A stretch of DNA of 64,000 bases, taken from an uncultured Elusimicrobiales bacterium (GTDB lineage: Bacteria > Elusimicrobiota > Elusimicrobia > Elusimicrobiales > Elusimicrobiaceae). The stretch spans positions 1 through 64,000 of the forward strand of contig CALUXE010000007.1 of NCBI GenBank assembly GCA_944324675.1. The letters run 5' to 3'. Shown here piece after piece: positions 54,208-62,692 of the stretch. The notes beneath the pieces are model-generated. The model saw only the letters and a program-made list of their open reading frames with translations, was not told the DNA's origin and searched no databases. Each line of letters opens with the position of its first letter. Within the stretch, counting starts at the first letter, position 1. Both the position numbers and the translations under genes were made by a program.

Positions 54208-54909
54208 ATGAGCTGCGAAAAATGCACCCCTCACGTTGAAAATATGTGCAGCGTATGCAAAGGCGCTAAACATAATCCGGCCCCTATCCCTGAAGAAGGA
54301 AAATGGGTCAATTCCAAGCAAATTACAGATATCAGCGGTCTTACGCACGGTGTGGGTTGGTGCGCACCCCAGCAGGGCGCGTGCAAACTTACGTTAAACG
54401 TAAAGAACGGCATAATAAAGGAAGCCTTGGTGGAAACTTTGGGCTGCTCCGGTATGACGCACTCTGCGGCGATGGCTGCGGAAATTTTGCCGGGCAAAAC
54501 CATTCTTGAAGCTTTAAATTCCGATTTGGTCTGCGACGCCATCAACACGGCGATGAGAGAATTATTCCTCCAGATAGTATACGGCAGGACGCAGAGCGCG
54601 TTCTCCGAAGACGGTTTGCCGATAGGCGCCGGTATGGAGGATTTGGGCAAAGGTTTGCGCTCACAAGTTGGCACGATGTACAGCACCGAAGCCAAAGGCC
54701 CCCGCTACCTGGAAATGGCGGAAGGCTATGTCCTTGAGATCGGCCTTGACAAAAATAATGAAGTCATCGGATACAAATTCGTCAATTTGGGCAAAATGAT
54801 GGACGCCATAAAGAAAGGCGAAGATCCGAAAACCGCCTATGAGAAAAACATCAATTCTTACGGGCGCTTCAACGAAGCCGTCAAGAAGATAGATCCGCGC
54901 AAAGAGTAA
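54208..54909 (+). CDS. NifU-like iron-sulfur cluster scaffold protein
   Basis: Protein of 233 residues. An N-terminal extension with cysteine pairs (CEKC at about 3-6 and CSVC near 14-17) precedes an IscU/NifU-N-type domain, seen in VETLGCSGMTHSAAMAAEIL and the following GKTILEALNSDLVCDAINT. Conserved cysteines are at about 58, 79 and 108. It likely assembles or carries Fe-S clusters, which PFOR and ferredoxins in this organism need in quantity. The GGGtGRT gene follows after 20 bp. The pairing of these two genes is known from other anaerobes, though the partner's function is not established. Confidence 0.8.
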   Translation: MSCEKCTPHVENMCSVCKGAKHNPAPIPEEGKWVNSKQITDISGLTHGVGWCAPQQGACKLTLNVKNGIIKEALVETLGCSGMTHSAAMAAEILPGKTILEALNSDLVCDAINTAMRELFLQIVYGRTQSAFSEDGLPIGAGMEDLGKGLRSQVGTMYSTEAKGPRYLEMAEGYVLEIGLDKNNEVIGYKFVNLGKMMDAIKKGEDPKTAYEKNINSYGRFNEAVKKIDPRKE

Positions 54910-54929
54910 CCGGGGAGGAATATAACACT

Positions 54930-55928
54930 ATGATTACATTTGAAGGTTATGAAAGAAGAATAGACAAAATAAACGCCGCCTTGAAAGAGAACGGCATTGC
55001 CTCCTTGGAAGACGCAAAAAAGATCTGCGACGATAAAGGCATAGACGTAGAAAAGATAGTAAAAGGCATACAGCCCATCGCTTTTGAAAACGCCGTCTGG
55101 GCCTATACGGTAGGCGCGGCGATAGCGATAAAGAGCGGGGTAAAAACCGCGGCTGAAGCGGCCGAAAAAATCGGCGTAGGATTGCAGAGCTTCTGCGTAC
55201 CCGGCTCCGTAGCCGATCAGCGCGAAGTAGGCCTTGGCCACGGCAATTTGGCAGCCATGCTGTTGCGCGAAAACACGAAATGCTTCTGCTTCTTGGCGGG
55301 GCATGAATCTTTCGCTGCGGCGGAAGGCGCAATCGGTATTGCCAGAACGGCCAATAAAGTAAGAAAAGAACCTCTTAAAGTTATTTTGAACGGGCTTGGC
55401 AAAGACGCGGCTTATATTATATCCCGCATCAACGGTTTTACCTATGTTGAGACCGCTTACGATTACTATACCGGCAAACTCAATATAGTAAGCGAGAAGG
55501 CGTTTTCCGACGGAGATAAAGCCAAAGTCAAATGCTATGGCGCCGACGACGTAAACGAAGGCGTCGCCATAATGAGGCACGAGGACGTGGACGTTTCCAT
55601 TACCGGCAACTCCACCAACCCGACACGCTTCCAGCACCCGGTAGCCGGCACCTATAAGAAATGGGCGACCGAACACGGCAAGAAATATTTCTCCGTGGCT
55701 TCCGGCGGCGGTACCGGCAGAACGTTGCACCCCGACAATATGGCCGCCGGCCCCGCTTCCTACGGTATGACCGATACCATGGGCCGCATGCACGGCGACG
55801 CGCAGTTCGCGGGTTCTTCTTCGGTTCCCGCCCATGTGGAAATGATGGGCCTCATCGGTATGGGCAACAACCCGATGGTAGGCGCAAGCGTCGCGGTAGC
55901 GGTAGCGATAGAAGAAGCCTCAAAATAA
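54930..55928 (+). CDS. GGGtGRT protein
   Basis: Protein of 332 residues that contains the family-defining GGGTGRT motif (about 250-256) followed by LHPDNMAAGPASYGMTDTMG and GSSSVPAHVEMMGLIGMGN. Other segments are CVPGSVADQREVGLGHGN and CFCFLAGHESFAAAEGAIG. The biochemical role is unknown to me. Regular occurrence beside a NifU-like scaffold suggests a link to Fe-S or sulfur chemistry. A GGGGAGGA site precedes the ATG, and it is co-transcribed with the scaffold gene up to the terminator at 55941. Confidence 0.88.
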   Translation: MITFEGYERRIDKINAALKENGIASLEDAKKICDDKGIDVEKIVKGIQPIAFENAVWAYTVGAAIAIKSGVKTAAEAAEKIGVGLQSFCVPGSVADQREVGLGHGNLAAMLLRENTKCFCFLAGHESFAAAEGAIGIARTANKVRKEPLKVILNGLGKDAAYIISRINGFTYVETAYDYYTGKLNIVSEKAFSDGDKAKVKCYGADDVNEGVAIMRHEDVDVSITGNSTNPTRFQHPVAGTYKKWATEHGKKYFSVASGGGTGRTLHPDNMAAGPASYGMTDTMGRMHGDAQFAGSSSVPAHVEMMGLIGMGNNPMVGASVAVAVAIEEASK

Positions 55929-55966: not shown

Positions 55967-56090
55967 AATGAGCTATATTTTTGCGAGACCCTGTTTTAAT
56001 CTTTTTGCATTTTTGACAAAAATCTAAAATATCGCAAAATTAATAAAACGCCTTTCTATAGGTGAAACATCAACCGTGAAAACTTTTATT

Positions 56091-56158
56091 GGGCCTTAAG
56101 ACCCAGTTAAGAATGGGCCTAAAATCCGCTTGAAGGGCCACTTGGAAAAAAATAAAAT
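56091..56158 (+). promoter_or_regulatory. Shared-regulon promoter, relaxed copy (locus 7)
   Basis: Left half GGGCCTTAAGACCC and right half GGGCCTAAAATCCGC precede -35 TTGAAG at 56130-56135. A 17-bp spacer and -10 TAAAAT at 56153-56158 follow. The right half ends two bases further from its GGCC than in the strict copies. It drives the short transcript ending near 56419. Confidence 0.65.
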
Positions 56159-56220
56159 TTAAATATAAGAAGTTGGCAGAAGCGGTAATTTGTACATTTT
56201 AGCAATAAAGGAATGCCAAG

Positions 56221-56397
56221 ATGTTTATGAAATATTTAATAAACGGAAGCGAAGGAGGCGCCCGGGCTTGCGAAAGCAGGGCCCGCTTTAAGCGTTTGGT
56301 ATTCCACGCGCATTTCCCCAGCGGAAGTGCCGTCGGCGGCAATGGGGAGGAATATTGCCGCATAAGAACAAAGTGTATTTTCGGAAAAGGTGTCTAA
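56221..56397 (+). CDS. Possible 58-residue peptide inside a short terminated transcript
   Basis: An open frame of 58 codons starting MFMKYLINGSEGG and ending KCIFGKGV, preceded by AAAGGA about nine bases upstream. It contains three cysteines, has no signal peptide and resembles no family I know. Its stop codon lies inside the left arm of the terminator at 56385. It could be a leader peptide that couples translation to read-through into the giant gene, a short protein, or chance coding in a small RNA. A minus-strand frame over the same bases is also open, so coding status is uncertain. Confidence 0.35.
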   Translation: MFMKYLINGSEGGARACESRARFKRLVFHAHFPSGSAVGGNGEEYCRIRTKCIFGKGV

Positions 56398-56419
56398 AAA
56401 TTTTAGGCACCTTTTTTTT
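56385..56419 (+). terminator. Terminator/attenuator between the regulon promoter and the giant gene
   Basis: AAAAGGTGTCTAAAA and TTTTAGGCACCTTTT form a long stem followed by T8. The stop codon of the upstream short frame is inside the stem. The giant gene starts 72 bp later. Confidence 0.85.
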
Positions 56420-56490
56420 GGTCTTGAAAAAAACAAAGGCAAAGGTAAAAGATTTTTGAGGCCAACGATAATTAAACGGTAAATAATACA

Positions 56491-59400
56491 ATGAAAAAGA
56501 TTCTTTCTTCTCTAGGCGTAAAAATCGTTTCGATAGTTCTCTCTTTTACTATTCTTTTTGAATGTAATACGGCGGCTTTCGCGGGAATTGATTTCTCAAA
56601 AGGGGAGGTTGTTTTCTCTTATGACAGTTTTAACGCGGCCGATTTATCGGAATTTGACGCCAAATTGGAGGATTTGTTCTTAAAAGGGGAAGAAGGAAAC
56701 GTCTATGAAGCTTATCTTAACAGGGAAACGGCTTTAATTCTAAAAACTTTGCAAGACGATAAAAGACGGGCACGAATCGCCTCGTTAAAAAAAGAAGGGG
56801 AAGCGAAATACGGCGATATGGCGCCGATGTACGTAAAGAGGGTGGCTGCAAAGGATATAAAATCCTTGGAAGAAGATTTGATGTCGTATTTGGCGGCTTA
56901 TTTTCTAACGCCTAGGGTAATATCTTTAAAGGAATATGAGGAGTTTTACAACTCCATTATATTGGAAAACGCCAATGAATATGTGAAACACAATCCATCC
57001 CAAAGCTCCGTCCCCTATGCCAACCCTTTAGAAGCCGCGCTCGCTAAACTAAAGAAGTATTATCCTCTTAAAGAATGCTACGCCGCATACCAAAAAGAGG
57101 CTGAAGAAGAAATAGCCTGGCGCGCGGCAAATAAAACCAAAGTAGATGACGCCGCCTATAAAGTTCTGCGCGGTTATATCGAAGCCGCGGGGGCGGAGAA
57201 TTTATCCTCAACCGTTTTGCAGTACCTTATAAATCTTGAAATCGGCGGCAAAGCGCTTATAACCGCCGAGGAAAGGGAAAACATATATAATTACGCGGTG
57301 TCGCGTTTGGAAAAACAAAATCTGAAATCCTTGGAGCTTGACATAACCAGTGGAAAAACAGAGAAGCAAGTCGCCGCCCTCCTATTGGTCGATATTATAG
57401 ATACGATAATAATCGGATCTTATTTTTCCGCTGAAGACGACGGACGTTACTCCGAGGCCGTTAAACGCTTAGTATATGCGTCCGAGAAAGGGGTAGGCTT
57501 CGGGCAAATACTGAGCAACGGATTTTCCGCCCTGTTGGCTGTGGGGGATTATTTTTCCTTAAGAGAAATTCTCTCCCGCTACAGTTCAATGGATAAGCAA
57601 AAAGCTCGTTTCGGCGAATATTTAAGTTTGACTTTATATTCTTCCAAAGCCCGTACGGCCGGCGGCAGATTTTTGGGCAAGGCTTCTTCCCTGACGCAAT
57701 ACAGCGGCAATTATTTTTACGGCAATGCCTTTACCGACATGGCTCTTTTATTGGCCGAAGACGGCGGGAATGAGGCCTTGGCGATACTTAAGGAATACGG
57801 CGCGGATAAGGGTTTGGACGGTTCCATAAAACCGTTTTTGGCGGGCGCTTTGATAAGCGGAAAATCGGGTTTGTCTGAAGATGGCGCCAGGAATATGGCG
57901 GCTGATTTGGCCAATTTGACTTTGGGCGACATAACCGCTTTGCAGGAATACGATATAGACAGGGATTTATTGTCGAGATATCCCGACATAAAGGAAAAAC
58001 TTGATTCCGGCGCGGTGATAACGCGGGAGCAGCTTGAGGCAAGAAGGGCGCGCAACAAGCGTTTTGACTTTTTGGACAATGCCGCTTTCGCTGGCGATAT
58101 ATTGCTTCTTATATGGGGTGTGGCGGGGCTTGCCAAACTGGGGGGCAAGGCTTTGGCTTTAAGCGAGTCCACTTATACGGCGGTAAAGGCGGGGCACATA
58201 GCCGATAAAGCCAAGAAAATAGCTTATATCAGAGCCAATTACGCTAAGTTGGACAAATATATATCCGCGCGCAACAATATGCTGCTTTTTGGCGGAAGAA
58301 TAAAAAGATCGTTTTTGCGCTTTAAAGGGGTAAATGCCGTCTTGGGGGCAAATGATAGCCGCCAGGCGATAAAACTGGCGAATTATTTTAATAAAAAACA
58401 GCTGGCCTCTTTATATGAAGCCCGCAAGAAAGCGGTAATGGCGGTCAGAAACACCAGCAATCCCACTCAAAGGCAAGCGGCTAAAGCAAAATTGGCCACA
58501 GCCGAATATAAGGCAAAGCAGGCGCAGATAAGTTTGCTTAAAAAAGCCAGATTATACGGTTCATCGGTGGAAGCCAAAAACGCTTCTTATTTGCAGAAAG
58601 TCAAGGACTATAATTCGGCCGTAAGTCTGTATAATTCAAAAATGTCCAAGCTAGGCGCGCTCAAAGCCGATGGCGCTTCATTTACGGAAATGGAGCTTTT
58701 GGGCAAGGAAATAAAGACTATGGCTTCCGGCTTGGAAAGGGCGCCCTCTGCGCCTTTGTATACTGCCGGCGAAATGGAATACTTAAAGGCGGGCAAGCTG
58801 TTTTCTTCAAGATTGGGTAAATTGCAAATTGCCAAAGCCGATTATAAAGCCGCCGGGTGGTGGAATAGAAATATAGCCAGGCCGTGGCAGAAATTTAGCG
58901 CTTCTTCGGGCGACGGCAGTTTGGGGCTGTGGAAACTTGAAACCGGGAAAGGCGTAACCATATCCGAGGCTTTGGGTATAAAACGTCCGTATAATATAGA
59001 CTATACCAAAAGCTTTAAGCTTTTTGGCGGCGCTTCGGATAAAACTCCCGTAAACAAGTTTTACGCTTTTCTTACCGCGCACAAAATGAAGCCCGTGGCG
59101 GATTTCTTTAAGTTTGTTAACAACAGGGCGACGGTATTTGGCATGGCGCTTATGTTTAATTACAATATAGCGACGACCGTGCCGCAAGTCGGGGCTTTGA
59201 GCAAAAATTTAACTACCGCGACGGAATTGGTGCTGAATGCGGAGAAAGGCTTAAATTTAGGAAAGACTATTAGCTTGGGCGCCAGGGCGACTAGTATGCC
59301 TCTTATGCCATCCCTGCCGAAAATTCAACCGGTAAACCTAATAGATCCCAAGATATTTAAATCTTACGGCGGGGTTCCCCTGCCGGGCGGGAATTTTATA

Positions 59401-62400
59401 AACAATTTCAGCCTAAGAGGCTTGTTGGGCGGGTTTTTCAAGGCGGGTTACGCAGTGGCCGGCACGGCCGGAATGGGGCTTATGTTTACTAAAGATTTAT
59501 ACGCCCATTTTGACGGGAAATTGCTGAACACCGCCACAACCCCGGGGCAATATTTGGGAGGCAAGCTTTTTGACAATCTGAACGCTGGCGAGTTTAAGGT
59601 TTACGGAGAGAGTCATTTGGCCGGAGAATTGAACGGGCAAACAGCCGGTCTTGCCTCTTGGGGTTTCGCCTGGCCGAGCGGATATGGCGCTATAGCCCGC
59701 TCTTTCGGAGTGGAAAAAGCGAATAAATACGCATACGAGATACCCGCCGTGCCGCATTTGGCCTCCTCGTCATCTTCATATAGGACGCGTCCTTATTATG
59801 CCGCGGATCAGGAAATACGGGCGGCCGCCGCGCGGCAGAAAATAAGCGAAGAGAAAGCCCTTTCCGCCGCCTGGGACGAGGTGTCTGCCAATCTTGAGGG
59901 GGAGCCCTCGCAAGTAATGGCCGAGATGAAAGTTGGCGCAATAACCTTTAAAGTCTTGCGCGGGCACATCGCTACGAATAATGAGGGCGGCCCTGCGAAG
60001 ACCAAAATAATCAGGGGGTTCTTTTCCGACTTCGGGCTTGCCAAGATAATATATAAAAATTCCGAGAACAGAATAAAAGACTCCAGCAACCATAGCGATG
60101 AAAAATATATAAGCAAAGCGGATTTTATCCGTCTGTCTTCCATATTGCGGGAATACGCTCCGGTATCGCAGGTCGACGGTTTCCCCAAGAAGCTTACCTA
60201 CCGCATAAAAGTCGGCGACGGACAGAAATTGGTGGCGGTATTTAACGCTTTGGGGGATAGTGACGAATATTCCTTAGCGTCTATGTCCTACCGCAAAATA
60301 GACGATAACGACGTTTATTTTTCCGAGAAGTTAGAATCGGGGCTAAAAGAGTATCTTTCCTTAAATCAAGGTTTTAATTTCTCGTATGGCAACAATATAG
60401 TTTCTTTAGAAGAAGACGGGCTTGTGGCGGCGTCCGGCCAGCGCCCTTTTGATCCTTCCTTTGAGAATAGAAATTATACCGTAAGCGTTATAAACAACAA
60501 GGGCGACGAGCTCATTTTGCCGGTGGCGCTTTCCTTCAATGAAGATTTTGATACAAACGGATATACGAATATCGTTATAAACAATCATACCGCCGAGCTT
60601 AGGGAATTTGGCAAGAGACCCAGGACGATGTCCAACTTCTATTTGAGGCTTAAGACGGAAAATAAGAGCCTTGTAAAATTTGTAAAAGCTCTTAAAGACG
60701 CAAAAGAGAATATTACGATAAAATTATGGCAGCACGGAATAGAACCCTCCAAGCTGGTTACCGTTCCTCTTTATAATGCCCTCGGGCGGGAAGAACTGCC
60801 CATAAAAGTGATAACGGACGCCAATTTCTTCAAGCAAGGCGGGAAATTGGTTTTAATGCCTTCGGGCAAAATCGGGTTGCTTTCGGACAGATCGGCGATG
60901 CCGACGCCTTTGGGTCCTTCCGTGTTGATAAGAATCCCCAAAAATCAGTGCGACACTTTATTAAGAGTTCTGGCGCAGACCAAAGACGTGTTGCCCATAG
61001 AAGTCATGCGGAGCTACAATAAAGCCGATGTTATAGTCAATGAGGGGTTTTACATAAATCTCAGCTTGGGCAAGACTATGGGGCCGGTCTTGCCGGAATC
61101 TTTGGGCGTCAGCGAGGCTTTCGCGACCAACTTGATGTATGTGGTAAATTATTTGCCGGGTTTGCTTTCGCCGATGCTAAATCCTTTGGTAAAGAAATAC
61201 GGCGAAGTGGCGATGTTTAAAGTGTCTATTGTAATATCCATGCTGGCGGCGCTTATACCGTCGTTCTTCGGTTTTTACGGATATTCTTACGAAATGGAAC
61301 CGACCTCGCTTAGGACCATATCGCTTATCTTGTCGTTATTTGCTTTGGCTTTCTCTATAAACATAAGAGGTGTAGTGGGCAACTCCCTGATGAATATGAA
61401 CAGAGGGACGGCGCCGATATCAAAAGATAAGAAAAATGGAGAGCAAAACTTTGCCGAAGCGCTTAAAATTACGAGCGATATTTTAATGGAAAAATTCAAG
61501 AAGCTGTTTTCAAGCAGCAGCAACTTTTCCATGGGAGATATTTTATTCTACAACCGCAGTTTTATCAACAAAAATATCGGCACGATGACGTTTTTGGTGG
61601 CGCCTTCGGCGTTAAACTATGCGGGGCGGGCTCTTGGTATGGACTTTAATTTCGGTTGGGACGTATCTTTGCCTTTGTACGCGGCCTACAGCGCTTACGC
61701 GGGTTATAAGGTTCACCGTACGAATTTGAGGGACAAAAAAATAATAGATCACATCAAGAGTGAGGTATATCAAATGGCGCCCGCAACGGATGAAACGGAA
61801 CTCGCGGCGATAGCCATGGAAAGTGCTAATCAGAAACGCCAAAAGAGTTATTTGAAAGACATAAAAGAAGTGTTTGACATTATGTTCCATAAAGAGGGGG
61901 TTATGAGCATAGTGGTCGGAATGTCTTTGGCGACTGCGCACCAACTTTCCGTGTCCAGCGCGTTTTCCTCTGCTCTTTACCAGATAATACCCGACGGCGA
62001 TATGGCGACGTTAATGGTAATAGGGGTATTATACGGCGCTTTAATATTCGGCAGATTACTGGGATATATAACTACAACTAGGATGTCTACGGCTACATCA
62101 TATTTGGCCTATTCTTCGCTTTCCGGTTTGGGTACGGTAGGGATATTGATAGGCATAATGGCCGATATTCCCTCTCTGATAGTATCGAGCGGCGTGATAG
62201 CGAGCATCGGCATGGGTAACTTTTATTCACAAATGTTCGCTTATATCATAAGGAAACATCCCGAGCTGCAGAGCCAAATATCTCAAGCTTTAAACTTTAC
62301 GATGCCTATAGCGGTCGGGTTATCCATGCCGATAACGTATTTGAACGATTGGTTAAATGTTCCTTACGCGAGGGTGATGGCGTCGCTGGCTATGTTGGCG

Positions 62401-62580
62401 GCAAGTATGATAGTAACAAGTAAGATGCTGGATAATTCCACTTTATACAAATTTATCAAGCAGGAGTTTAAAGAGGCTTCGGACTATGTGGTGGGATTAT
62501 ACAAGGACAAGATAAAGGGGAATAAGGACAAAGGGGGAGAGCCTCCCAGCACGGATTTGAACAATCCGCTTCCCAACTAA
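56491..62580 (+). CDS. Giant secreted/membrane protein with a C-terminal MFS-like module
   Basis: Protein of 2029 residues. A signal peptide (about 1-31, ending AFA) is followed by a long helical region (about 35-520) and a hydrophobic segment (about 533-555, AGDILLLIWGVAGLAKLGG). An Ala/Lys-rich coiled coil (about 640-755) and a mixed region with several hydrophobic stretches (about 870-1040) come next. A beta-rich soluble part occupies about 1150-1500. The last 500 residues (about 1530-1990) look like a major-facilitator fold of roughly 10-12 helices with two polar inserts, including GVLYGALIFGRLLGYITTTR. Fusion of an exported region this size to a transporter-like module is unusual. The role is unknown; surface structure, secretion or large-substrate uptake are guesses. 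No clear ribosome-binding site precedes the ATG. Confidence 0.72.
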   Translation: MKKILSSLGVKIVSIVLSFTILFECNTAAFAGIDFSKGEVVFSYDSFNAADLSEFDAKLEDLFLKGEEGNVYEAYLNRETALILKTLQDDKRRARIASLKKEGEAKYGDMAPMYVKRVAAKDIKSLEEDLMSYLAAYFLTPRVISLKEYEEFYNSIILENANEYVKHNPSQSSVPYANPLEAALAKLKKYYPLKECYAAYQKEAEEEIAWRAANKTKVDDAAYKVLRGYIEAAGAENLSSTVLQYLINLEIGGKALITAEERENIYNYAVSRLEKQNLKSLELDITSGKTEKQVAALLLVDIIDTIIIGSYFSAEDDGRYSEAVKRLVYASEKGVGFGQILSNGFSALLAVGDYFSLREILSRYSSMDKQKARFGEYLSLTLYSSKARTAGGRFLGKASSLTQYSGNYFYGNAFTDMALLLAEDGGNEALAILKEYGADKGLDGSIKPFLAGALISGKSGLSEDGARNMAADLANLTLGDITALQEYDIDRDLLSRYPDIKEKLDSGAVITREQLEARRARNKRFDFLDNAAFAGDILLLIWGVAGLAKLGGKALALSESTYTAVKAGHIADKAKKIAYIRANYAKLDKYISARNNMLLFGGRIKRSFLRFKGVNAVLGANDSRQAIKLANYFNKKQLASLYEARKKAVMAVRNTSNPTQRQAAKAKLATAEYKAKQAQISLLKKARLYGSSVEAKNASYLQKVKDYNSAVSLYNSKMSKLGALKADGASFTEMELLGKEIKTMASGLERAPSAPLYTAGEMEYLKAGKLFSSRLGKLQIAKADYKAAGWWNRNIARPWQKFSASSGDGSLGLWKLETGKGVTISEALGIKRPYNIDYTKSFKLFGGASDKTPVNKFYAFLTAHKMKPVADFFKFVNNRATVFGMALMFNYNIATTVPQVGALSKNLTTATELVLNAEKGLNLGKTISLGARATSMPLMPSLPKIQPVNLIDPKIFKSYGGVPLPGGNFINNFSLRGLLGGFFKAGYAVAGTAGMGLMFTKDLYAHFDGKLLNTATTPGQYLGGKLFDNLNAGEFKVYGESHLAGELNGQTAGLASWGFAWPSGYGAIARSFGVEKANKYAYEIPAVPHLASSSSSYRTRPYYAADQEIRAAAARQKISEEKALSAAWDEVSANLEGEPSQVMAEMKVGAITFKVLRGHIATNNEGGPAKTKIIRGFFSDFGLAKIIYKNSENRIKDSSNHSDEKYISKADFIRLSSILREYAPVSQVDGFPKKLTYRIKVGDGQKLVAVFNALGDSDEYSLASMSYRKIDDNDVYFSEKLESGLKEYLSLNQGFNFSYGNNIVSLEEDGLVAASGQRPFDPSFENRNYTVSVINNKGDELILPVALSFNEDFDTNGYTNIVINNHTAELREFGKRPRTMSNFYLRLKTENKSLVKFVKALKDAKENITIKLWQHGIEPSKLVTVPLYNALGREELPIKVITDANFFKQGGKLVLMPSGKIGLLSDRSAMPTPLGPSVLIRIPKNQCDTLLRVLAQTKDVLPIEVMRSYNKADVIVNEGFYINLSLGKTMGPVLPESLGVSEAFATNLMYVVNYLPGLLSPMLNPLVKKYGEVAMFKVSIVISMLAALIPSFFGFYGYSYEMEPTSLRTISLILSLFALAFSINIRGVVGNSLMNMNRGTAPISKDKKNGEQNFAEALKITSDILMEKFKKLFSSSSNFSMGDILFYNRSFINKNIGTMTFLVAPSALNYAGRALGMDFNFGWDVSLPLYAAYSAYAGYKVHRTNLRDKKIIDHIKSEVYQMAPATDETELAAIAMESANQKRQKSYLKDIKEVFDIMFHKEGVMSIVVGMSLATAHQLSVSSAFSSALYQIIPDGDMATLMVIGVLYGALIFGRLLGYITTTRMSTATSYLAYSSLSGLGTVGILIGIMADIPSLIVSSGVIASIGMGNFYSQMFAYIIRKHPELQSQISQALNFTMPIAVGLSMPITYLNDWLNVPYARVMASLAMLAASMIVTSKMLDNSTLYKFIKQEFKEASDYVVGLYKDKIKGNKDKGGEPPSTDLNNPLPN

Positions 62581-62600: not shown

Positions 62601-62637
62601 AAAGCGGCGGGCTAGGATAAAAAGCCCGCCGTTTTTG
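62601..62637 (+). terminator. Terminator of the giant gene
   Basis: CGGCGGGCT/AGCCCGCCG stem with a nine-base loop followed by TTTTTGT. Confidence 0.9.
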
Positions 62638-62663: not shown

Positions 62664-62692
62664 TTTACAAGGTAAGACATAAATGTTACATT
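62664..62692 (+). promoter_or_regulatory. Promoter of the sodium:solute symporter gene
   Basis: TTTACA at 62664-62669, a 17-bp spacer and TACATT at 62687-62692. The leader is about 37 bases with a GACGGAGG site before the ATG at 62736. Confidence 0.6.

What the first reader, a model, noticed from the sequence alone, without database searches (positions are those of the whole stretch)
56491..62580. 2029-residue exported protein fused to a transporter-like module
A signal peptide, about 1500 residues of helical and beta-rich sequence, then an MFS-like membrane domain with long polar inserts. I know no characterised protein with this order. Its size makes it a large investment, and it lies next to a regulon promoter.
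Basis: partly seen in the sequence, partly recalled or inferred. Interest (0 to 1): 0.6.

Follow-up and report, generated by a model that had tools for sequence, protein, structure and literature searches.

The report
Giant exported arm on MFS transporter
A gut bacterium of the Elusimicrobia makes a 2029-residue protein whose first three quarters appear to be exported from the cell interior and whose last quarter is a membrane transporter fold; this build is conserved in its bacterial family, but what it carries is unknown.

Summary
One intact ORF (56491-62580, +, 2029 aa) begins with a signal peptide and ends in a Major Facilitator Superfamily (MFS) fold, supported by AlphaFold2 plus structure comparison (Z 31-35) and by Pfam MFS_1 hits in 25 of 33 relatives. 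It is not a chance fusion: full-length orthologues occur in three other species, a fourth lacks one middle domain, and dN/dS is about 0.16. The C-terminal module (two repeated beta domains plus MFS) occurs in 72 of 340 phylum genomes, 71 in one family of gut Elusimicrobia. The N-module is shared with giant paralogues that carry trypsin-like or zeta-toxin/AAA domains instead. New here: loop charges give the MFS its usual C-inside orientation, which with an exported N-terminus demands an odd number of crossings. The first transmembrane slot is polar with an invariant lysine (LGKTMGP; hydrophobic in only 2 of 49 relatives), so the best model is an 11-crossing MFS with a periplasmic arm. Conserved polar residues in the helices suggest a working secondary transporter. 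Substrate, true topology and the function of the arm are untested. The 'regulon promoter' was not confirmed.

The parts
56491..56583 (+). signal peptide, residues 1-31
   Evidence: sequence; hydrophobic 19-mer 2.13; equivalent in 28 of 31 relatives with an ORF start
56584..58083 (+). N-module, helical, residues 32-531; shared with giant paralogues
   Evidence: profile A2 matches in 27 of 100 relatives, all in the same family; helical, solenoid-like low-confidence model
58084..58140 (+). conserved hydrophobic segment 532-550 (possible transmembrane helix) followed by a K/R-rich stretch
   Evidence: hydropathy and charge of 14 family members; strong K/R excess after it in 13 of 14
58141..59085 (+). 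basic region 551-865 (pI about 10) with a coiled coil at about 624-790
59086..59877 (+). linker 866-1129, with a weakly hydrophobic segment 866-885; among the least conserved parts
   Evidence: very low pLDDT
59878..60330 (+). middle alpha+beta domain 1130-1280, faint candidate for a BECR-type nuclease-like fold; absent from the G017 orthologue
   Evidence: alignment A7; 8 of 100 relatives, all in one family; one relative matches Pfam PBECR1 only at E 0.1
60469..61011 (+). two repeated beta-rich domains, residues 1327-1507
   Evidence: model; repeat relation by profile-profile comparison, probability 96.6%, E 6e-10
61012..61113 (+). TM1 slot 1508-1541: polar, with the invariant K1528 in LGKTMGP
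   Evidence: lies where the solved MFS chains start (TM1) in the structure comparison
61114..62430 (+). MFS helices TM2-TM12, residues 1542-1980
62431..62577 (+). C-terminal tail 1981-2029, basic, predicted cytoplasmic
   Evidence: C-terminal region after TM12: mean net charge +3.7 over 49 relatives
62603..62637 (+). terminator-like hairpin between this gene and the sugar symporter gene
   Evidence: sequence; hairpin with T tract present in 4 of 4 aligned loci

Best explanation
An inner-membrane MFS secondary transporter whose N-terminal three quarters are a Sec-exported, multi-domain periplasmic arm. Steps: (1) a cleavable signal peptide starts export (inferred); (2) the arm (helical N-module, basic coiled coil, middle domain, two beta domains) folds outside the cytoplasmic membrane (inferred); (3) the MFS inserts with its usual inside/outside polarity and a cytoplasmic C-terminus (supported by loop charges), which an exported N-terminus permits only with an odd number of crossings, met by the polar TM1 slot not spanning (11 crossings); (4) the beta pair sits at the outer mouth and presents or gates a small polar, perhaps anionic, solute that uses the conserved helix residues K1528, N1553, K1694-N1695, H1817, R1855, N1910 and Q1914 (inferred from conservation only); (5) the rest of the arm is a variable scaffold.
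For: MFS fold: AF2 model of 1297-2029 from 49 sequences, pLDDT 73.6, pTM 0.66; Foldseek E 4.9e-8, target TM up to 0.77; Z 30.7-34.7 over the 50 rows listed, model range about 212-687 against whole MFS chains; MFS_1 in 25 of 33 relatives at E<=0.01, best 2.2e-12. Orientation: loops 2-3, 4-5, 6-7, 8-9, 10-11 and the C-tail are net positive (+1.5 to +3.7), loops 3-4, 5-6, 7-8, 9-10, 11-12 net -0.1 to -1.1, over 49 relatives. TM1 slot: best 19-mer mean 0.51, at least 1.0 in 2 of 49; other helices mean 0.93-1.71. Signal peptide in 28 of 31; 22 relatives of 1146-1301 aa have a best upstream 19-mer of only 0.95-1.57. Invariant or near-invariant polar residues in the helices. Purifying selection: dN/dS 0.16 whole gene, 0.085-0.106 in the MFS, against two orthologues.
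Against: No experiment and no dedicated topology or signal predictor was available. True MFS helices here average as low as 0.93 by the same crude hydropathy, so upstream segments (up to 1.57 in short relatives, 1.56-2.23 in long ones) cannot be excluded as spanning. A conserved hydrophobic segment at 532-550 followed by strong positive charge looks like a transmembrane helix with the next part inside (13 of 14 members); for this protein the model then needs a second crossing, for which 866-885 is only a weak candidate. In the related 1570-1870 aa proteins TM1 is hydrophobic (18 of 23), so the homologous beta domains could sit on the other side there. At 1818 this protein has Q where 48 of 49 rows have E, so its own activity may differ. 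The beta domains and the arm have no identified fold or ligand.
Confidence: 0.48

Rival explanations
1. The MFS fold is only a membrane anchor: a degenerate transporter that holds a large periplasmic structural or surface-interaction arm.
For: The window's MFS scores below Pfam's cut-off (12.4-18.7 against 33.4 bits); TM1 is polar; the arm is far larger than a binding domain needs; Q replaces a conserved E at 1818.
Against: The MFS is the most constrained large part of the protein (dN/dS 0.085-0.106 against 0.16 for the whole) and keeps invariant polar residues inside the helices, unusual for a mere anchor.
Confidence: 0.2
2. A transporter-like sensor: signal peptide, periplasmic N-module, a true transmembrane helix at 532-550, cytoplasmic basic/coiled-coil/middle/beta domains, then a 12-helix MFS (13 crossings).
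For: Conserved hydrophobic segment followed by a K/R-rich stretch in 13 of 14 family members; hydrophobic TM1 in 18 of 23 of the related 1570-1870 aa proteins; one paralogue ends in a zeta-toxin/AAA domain that would need ATP (the ATP need is recalled).
Against: Short relatives (1146-1301 aa) have no clear upstream segment; TM1 is polar in 47 of 49 of this group; paralogues with the same N-module carry trypsin-like domains, which are usually exported (recalled).
Confidence: 0.15
3. A polymorphic effector or toxin system: the N-module is a trafficking chassis and the middle domain a nuclease; the MFS serves delivery or docking.
For: The same N-module precedes trypsin-like and zeta-toxin/AAA C-termini; the middle domain has a faint PBECR1 match in one relative (E 0.1) and comes and goes between orthologues.
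Against: The C-terminus here is the MFS, not a toxin domain; the adjacent downstream gene is a sugar symporter, not an immunity gene; the window's middle domain has N where three orthologues have an H; no hit in a defence-system library.
Confidence: 0.1
4. Chance fusion, assembly error or misread frame.
For: 17 of 49 related contigs end inside this gene, so the region assembles poorly in other genomes.
Against: Five genomes hold the join: the window's and three others at full length (75, 73 and 50% identity) and G017 without the middle domain, with purifying selection on both sides of the join.
Confidence: 0.02

Closest known systems
Major Facilitator Superfamily (Pfam MFS_1; SotB, NorA, MdfA, FLVCR1/2 structures)
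   Same: Fold, two six-helix halves, motif-A-like loop 2-3 (motif recalled), loop polarity, cytoplasmic C-terminus.
   Different: About 1500 residues with a signal peptide in front, polar TM1 slot, long loops 4-5 and 6-7, score below Pfam's cut-off for the window copy.
EmrAB-TolC type MFS exporters with a periplasmic coiled-coil adaptor
   Same: An MFS combined with a coiled coil that may lie in the periplasm; an EmrAB-TolC entry appears at Z 7.0, rank 48.
   Different: One chain instead of two; the match is tied with many unrelated coiled coils and is not evidence of kinship.
Polymorphic toxin systems
   Same: Shared N-terminal module with exchangeable C-terminal modules, a toxin-associated family among them (Zeta_toxin).
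   Different: No C-terminal toxin and no immunity gene here; in the review PMC3482391 (passages only) elusimicrobia appear twice, in the phylum lists for Ntox36 and Imm-Barstar.
Giant paralogues of the same genome (L033, 1556 aa; L034, 1580 aa)
   Same: Signal peptide and N-module; L034 also matches the C-module profile.
   Different: L033 seems to hold two trypsin-like stretches and no MFS (by eye; no Pfam run on it); L034's group has a hydrophobic TM1.

Membership tests
Major Facilitator Superfamily | MFS fold of two related helical bundles | tested here: met
   top Z 34.7, rmsd 3.1, 378 residues aligned
Major Facilitator Superfamily | curated sequence score of Pfam MFS_1 (33.4 bits) | tested here: not met
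   window 12.4 bits whole protein, 18.7 bits module; 25 of 33 relatives reach E<=0.01, best 2.2e-12. So it is filed by fold, not by the curated score
Major Facilitator Superfamily | twelve membrane-spanning helices with both ends cytoplasmic | tested here: inconclusive
   C-terminus inside by loop charges; TM1 slot hydrophobic in only 2 of 49
Major Facilitator Superfamily | solute transport | not testable with these tools
   needs an assay
Polymorphic toxin system | constant N-terminal module with variable C-terminal modules | tested here: met
Polymorphic toxin system | toxin domain at the C-terminus | tested here: not met
   the C-terminus is the MFS module
Polymorphic toxin system | immunity gene directly downstream | tested here: not met
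   the next gene is the same symporter cluster (c22) in window, L053, L054 and L055; L053's copy is a sodium/solute symporter
BECR nuclease fold (PBECR), for the middle domain | profile or fold match | tested here: inconclusive
   no Pfam match for the window's own domain at E<=5; a relative at E 0.1 to PBECR1; PDB profile search nothing below E 0.4
EmrA-type adaptor, for the coiled coil | adaptor fold | tested here: inconclusive
   Z 7.0 among many coiled coils
Known anti-phage defence protein | PADLOC model match | tested here: not met
   0 families for P0001 at E<=0.01

The most novel reading that the evidence does not exclude
A lineage-specific, one-chain trans-periplasmic transporter: an MFS that has given up its first spanning helix so that a very long exported arm can be built onto its outer face, the arm being an interchangeable chassis that in sister proteins of the same cells carries proteases and toxin-type enzymes instead. 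This would be both an odd-crossing MFS class and a new modular giant-protein system in gut Elusimicrobia.
Probability: 0.2. Interest if true: 0.75.

Novelty: new variant of a known kind. Interest (0 to 1): 0.5.

Why it matters
It would add an exported-N-terminus, probably 11-crossing architecture to a very widely studied transporter superfamily and show how an even-crossing fold can be joined to a secreted domain. It also points to two families of giant, apparently uncharacterised proteins conserved in host-associated Elusimicrobia with small genomes, where several genes of 5-12 kb are a notable cost.

Tried and rejected
Chance fusion: rejected. Identifying the arm by sequence: Pfam, NCBIfam and PDB sequence searches of the whole protein gave nothing beyond a weak MFS_1; the PDB profile search with the C-module gave 0 hits at E<=0.1. 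Second structure job (residues 103-1297, only 5 sequences): pLDDT 46, pTM 0.29, no Foldseek match at E<=0.001; helical-solenoid, coiled-coil and colicin-like matches at Z 7-9 are in the range that the tool calls a common arrangement, so I draw no kinship from them. N-termini of the short relatives (23 proteins given) are not detectably related to the N-module (hhalign probability 0.1%); one long relative pair is weakly related (61.5%, E 8e-5). A N-module scan of viral contigs found none. A search for a second copy of the near-palindrome at 62681 found none in the window, and the upstream element is single-copy in the genome. An Rfam match to MIR8008 at the downstream hairpin (E 0.39, below the gathering score) is taken as chance. 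Middle domain in PHROGs: only E 0.1-0.15. ART-like, kinase-like, receiver-like and HNH-like stretches that I saw by eye in paralogues were not supported by the searches that I ran and are not claimed. Literature: six searches, of which I saw the listings only, plus passages of PMC3482391 and PMC3710099, showed no description of these proteins; the main Elusimicrobium minutum genome paper is not held, so absence in print is not established.
Full report
What is there. The window lies at contig C7, 1-64000, of a 1.40 Mb genome (99.7% complete, 17 contigs). ORF 56491-62580 (+) is intact, 2029 aa. Its first 31 residues look like a signal peptide (my reading of the cleavage site). Pfam and NCBIfam give nothing above threshold, only a weak MFS_1 match at 1787-1943 (E 0.07).

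Relatives. With the whole protein as query, 48 of 100 related genomes match. Full-length orthologues are present in G001 (75%), G008 (73%) and G005 (50%); G017 has an 1843-aa version that lacks the middle domain. Codon comparison with two close orthologues gives dN/dS 0.16 for the gene and 0.085-0.106 for the MFS, so both sides of the join are under purifying selection. The C-terminal module alone (profile A3) occurs in 72 of 340 genomes of the phylum: 71 in the same family and one weak match elsewhere (G234, E 1.5e-4). A scan of named genomes gave 49 loci; titles that name a group say Elusimicrobia, Elusimicrobiales, Elusimicrobiaceae, Elusimicrobium or Avelusimicrobium, and the rest say 'uncultured bacterium'. 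G018, a single contig of 1,643,562 bases, has the size that I recall for Elusimicrobium minutum Pei191 (recalled, not tested).

The membrane domain. An AlphaFold2 model of 1297-2029 from 49 sequences has pLDDT 73.6 and pTM 0.66. Foldseek finds MFS proteins (FLVCR1, MdfA; best E 4.9e-8, target TM up to 0.77). VIA-align gives Z 34.7 (FLVCR2, rmsd 3.1, 378 aligned), 33.8 (SotB, rmsd 2.9, 357 aligned) and 32.3 (NorA, rmsd 4.5, 355 aligned), with model residues about 212-687 covering whole MFS chains. By sequence 25 of 33 relatives match MFS_1 at E<=0.01, best 2.2e-12; the window's own module is at 9e-4 and below the curated cut-off.

Topology. Over 49 relatives the loops TM2-3, 4-5, 6-7, 8-9, 10-11 and the C-tail carry mean net charges +1.8, +3.6, +2.0, +1.5, +2.0 and +3.7, and the loops TM3-4, 5-6, 7-8, 9-10 and 11-12 carry -0.8, -1.1, -0.1, -0.3 and -0.6. 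By the positive-inside rule (established knowledge) the domain has normal MFS polarity with a cytoplasmic C-terminus. A signal peptide puts the N-terminus outside. These two facts need an odd number of crossings between them, whereas a normal MFS has twelve. The slot of TM1 (1508-1541) is polar: its best 19-mer averages 0.51 and reaches 1.0 in 2 of 49 relatives, against means of 0.93-1.71 for TM2-TM12; it holds an invariant lysine in LGKTMGP. In 22 relatives of 1146-1301 aa the best hydrophobic 19-mer between signal peptide and TM1 is only 0.95-1.57. So I favour eleven crossings. Against it, residues 532-550 form a conserved hydrophobic segment followed by a strongly basic stretch in 13 of 14 family members, and in the related 1570-1870 aa group TM1 is hydrophobic in 18 of 23, which would suit a spanning helix at the 532-550 position there. 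In this protein a second candidate at 866-885 could restore the parity, but it is weak. The measure is crude, since genuine helices TM2 and TM6 average only 1.11 and 0.93.

Function of the domain. Polar residues that are invariant or nearly so lie in or next to the helices: K1528 (49 of 49), N1553 (47), N1631 (47), N1637 (49), K1694 (49), N1695 (48), H1817 (45), R1855 (49), N1910 (49), Q1914 (48). This fits a working transporter of a polar, perhaps anionic, solute (inference). At 1818 the window protein has Q where the other 48 have E, a caution about its own activity.

The arm. Two beta-rich domains (1327-1507) are internal repeats (hhalign probability 96.6%, E 6e-10). The middle domain (1130-1280) occurs in 8 of 100 relatives, in frames of 1459-4512 aa; its only hint is PBECR1 at E 0.1 in one relative. 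Residues 624-790 model as a coiled coil, and the N-module (32-531) models as helices at low confidence. The N-module profile is found in 27 of 100 related genomes, all in this family, with up to 7 matches per genome. Three proteins of the window's genome carry it. Paralogues with it hold trypsin-like domains (L036, PF13365 E 4.8e-21, two stretches) or a zeta-toxin/AAA domain (L035, PF06414 E 2.4e-8). So the arm is a shared chassis and the MFS one of several partners.

Neighbourhood. Downstream, behind a terminator-like hairpin, lies a sodium/solute symporter gene, conserved in G001, G008 and G017; in G001 it is followed by galactokinase, an epimerase and galactose-1-phosphate uridylyltransferase. 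In the other large genus the C-module gene has a different, also conserved place between coaD and a PHP-domain phosphatase gene, near secA and lnt. So no neighbour is constant and the galactose link is probably positional.

Verdict. Novel in architecture as far as my limited searches show, known in its membrane fold, unknown in substrate.

Noticed in passing
window 56080-56425: Conserved upstream block, most clearly a structured RNA candidate (56200-56420) that ends in a terminator: fold z-score -4.8; 8 of 61 consensus pairs with changes on both sides in 4 sequences; the 346-base block matches in 5 of 60 genomes (own included), all in the same genus, the best match of each lying just before this gene; no Rfam match there at E<=1. 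It can also be read as a 58-aa ORF, single copy in the genome.
   Followed up: partly
L033, L034, L035, L036, L039, L043, L044, L046: A set of giant multi-domain frames (1556-4510 aa) in these small genomes, several with the same exported N-module; Pfam names trypsin-like, zeta-toxin and ankyrin parts in some.
   Followed up: partly
17 of the 49 loci L053-L101: 17 of 49 related contigs, including ones of 376 and 699 kb, end inside this gene, mostly 50-350 residues before the first beta domain. No internal repeat of 18 bases or more explains it in the complete copies but one; the arm may vary between strains.
   Followed up: partly
L037, L108, L110: The related N-module plus MFS proteins of about 1570-1620 aa occur as adjacent pairs in three genomes.
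   Followed up: no
L046:6-5954; L044:766-12663: Each frame appears to hold two MFS-like membrane domains in tandem (hydropathy and reading by eye).
   Followed up: no
L058, L065, L075, L078: Relatives whose frames run about 550 residues past the MFS end (1388-1475 aa, N-terminus cut off), so some have a further C-terminal part.
   Followed up: no
window 54208-55928: GGGtGRT family gene (PF14057, E 3e-197) with a 233-aa partner directly before the giant gene; the pair is also there in G001, G008 and G005.
   Followed up: partly
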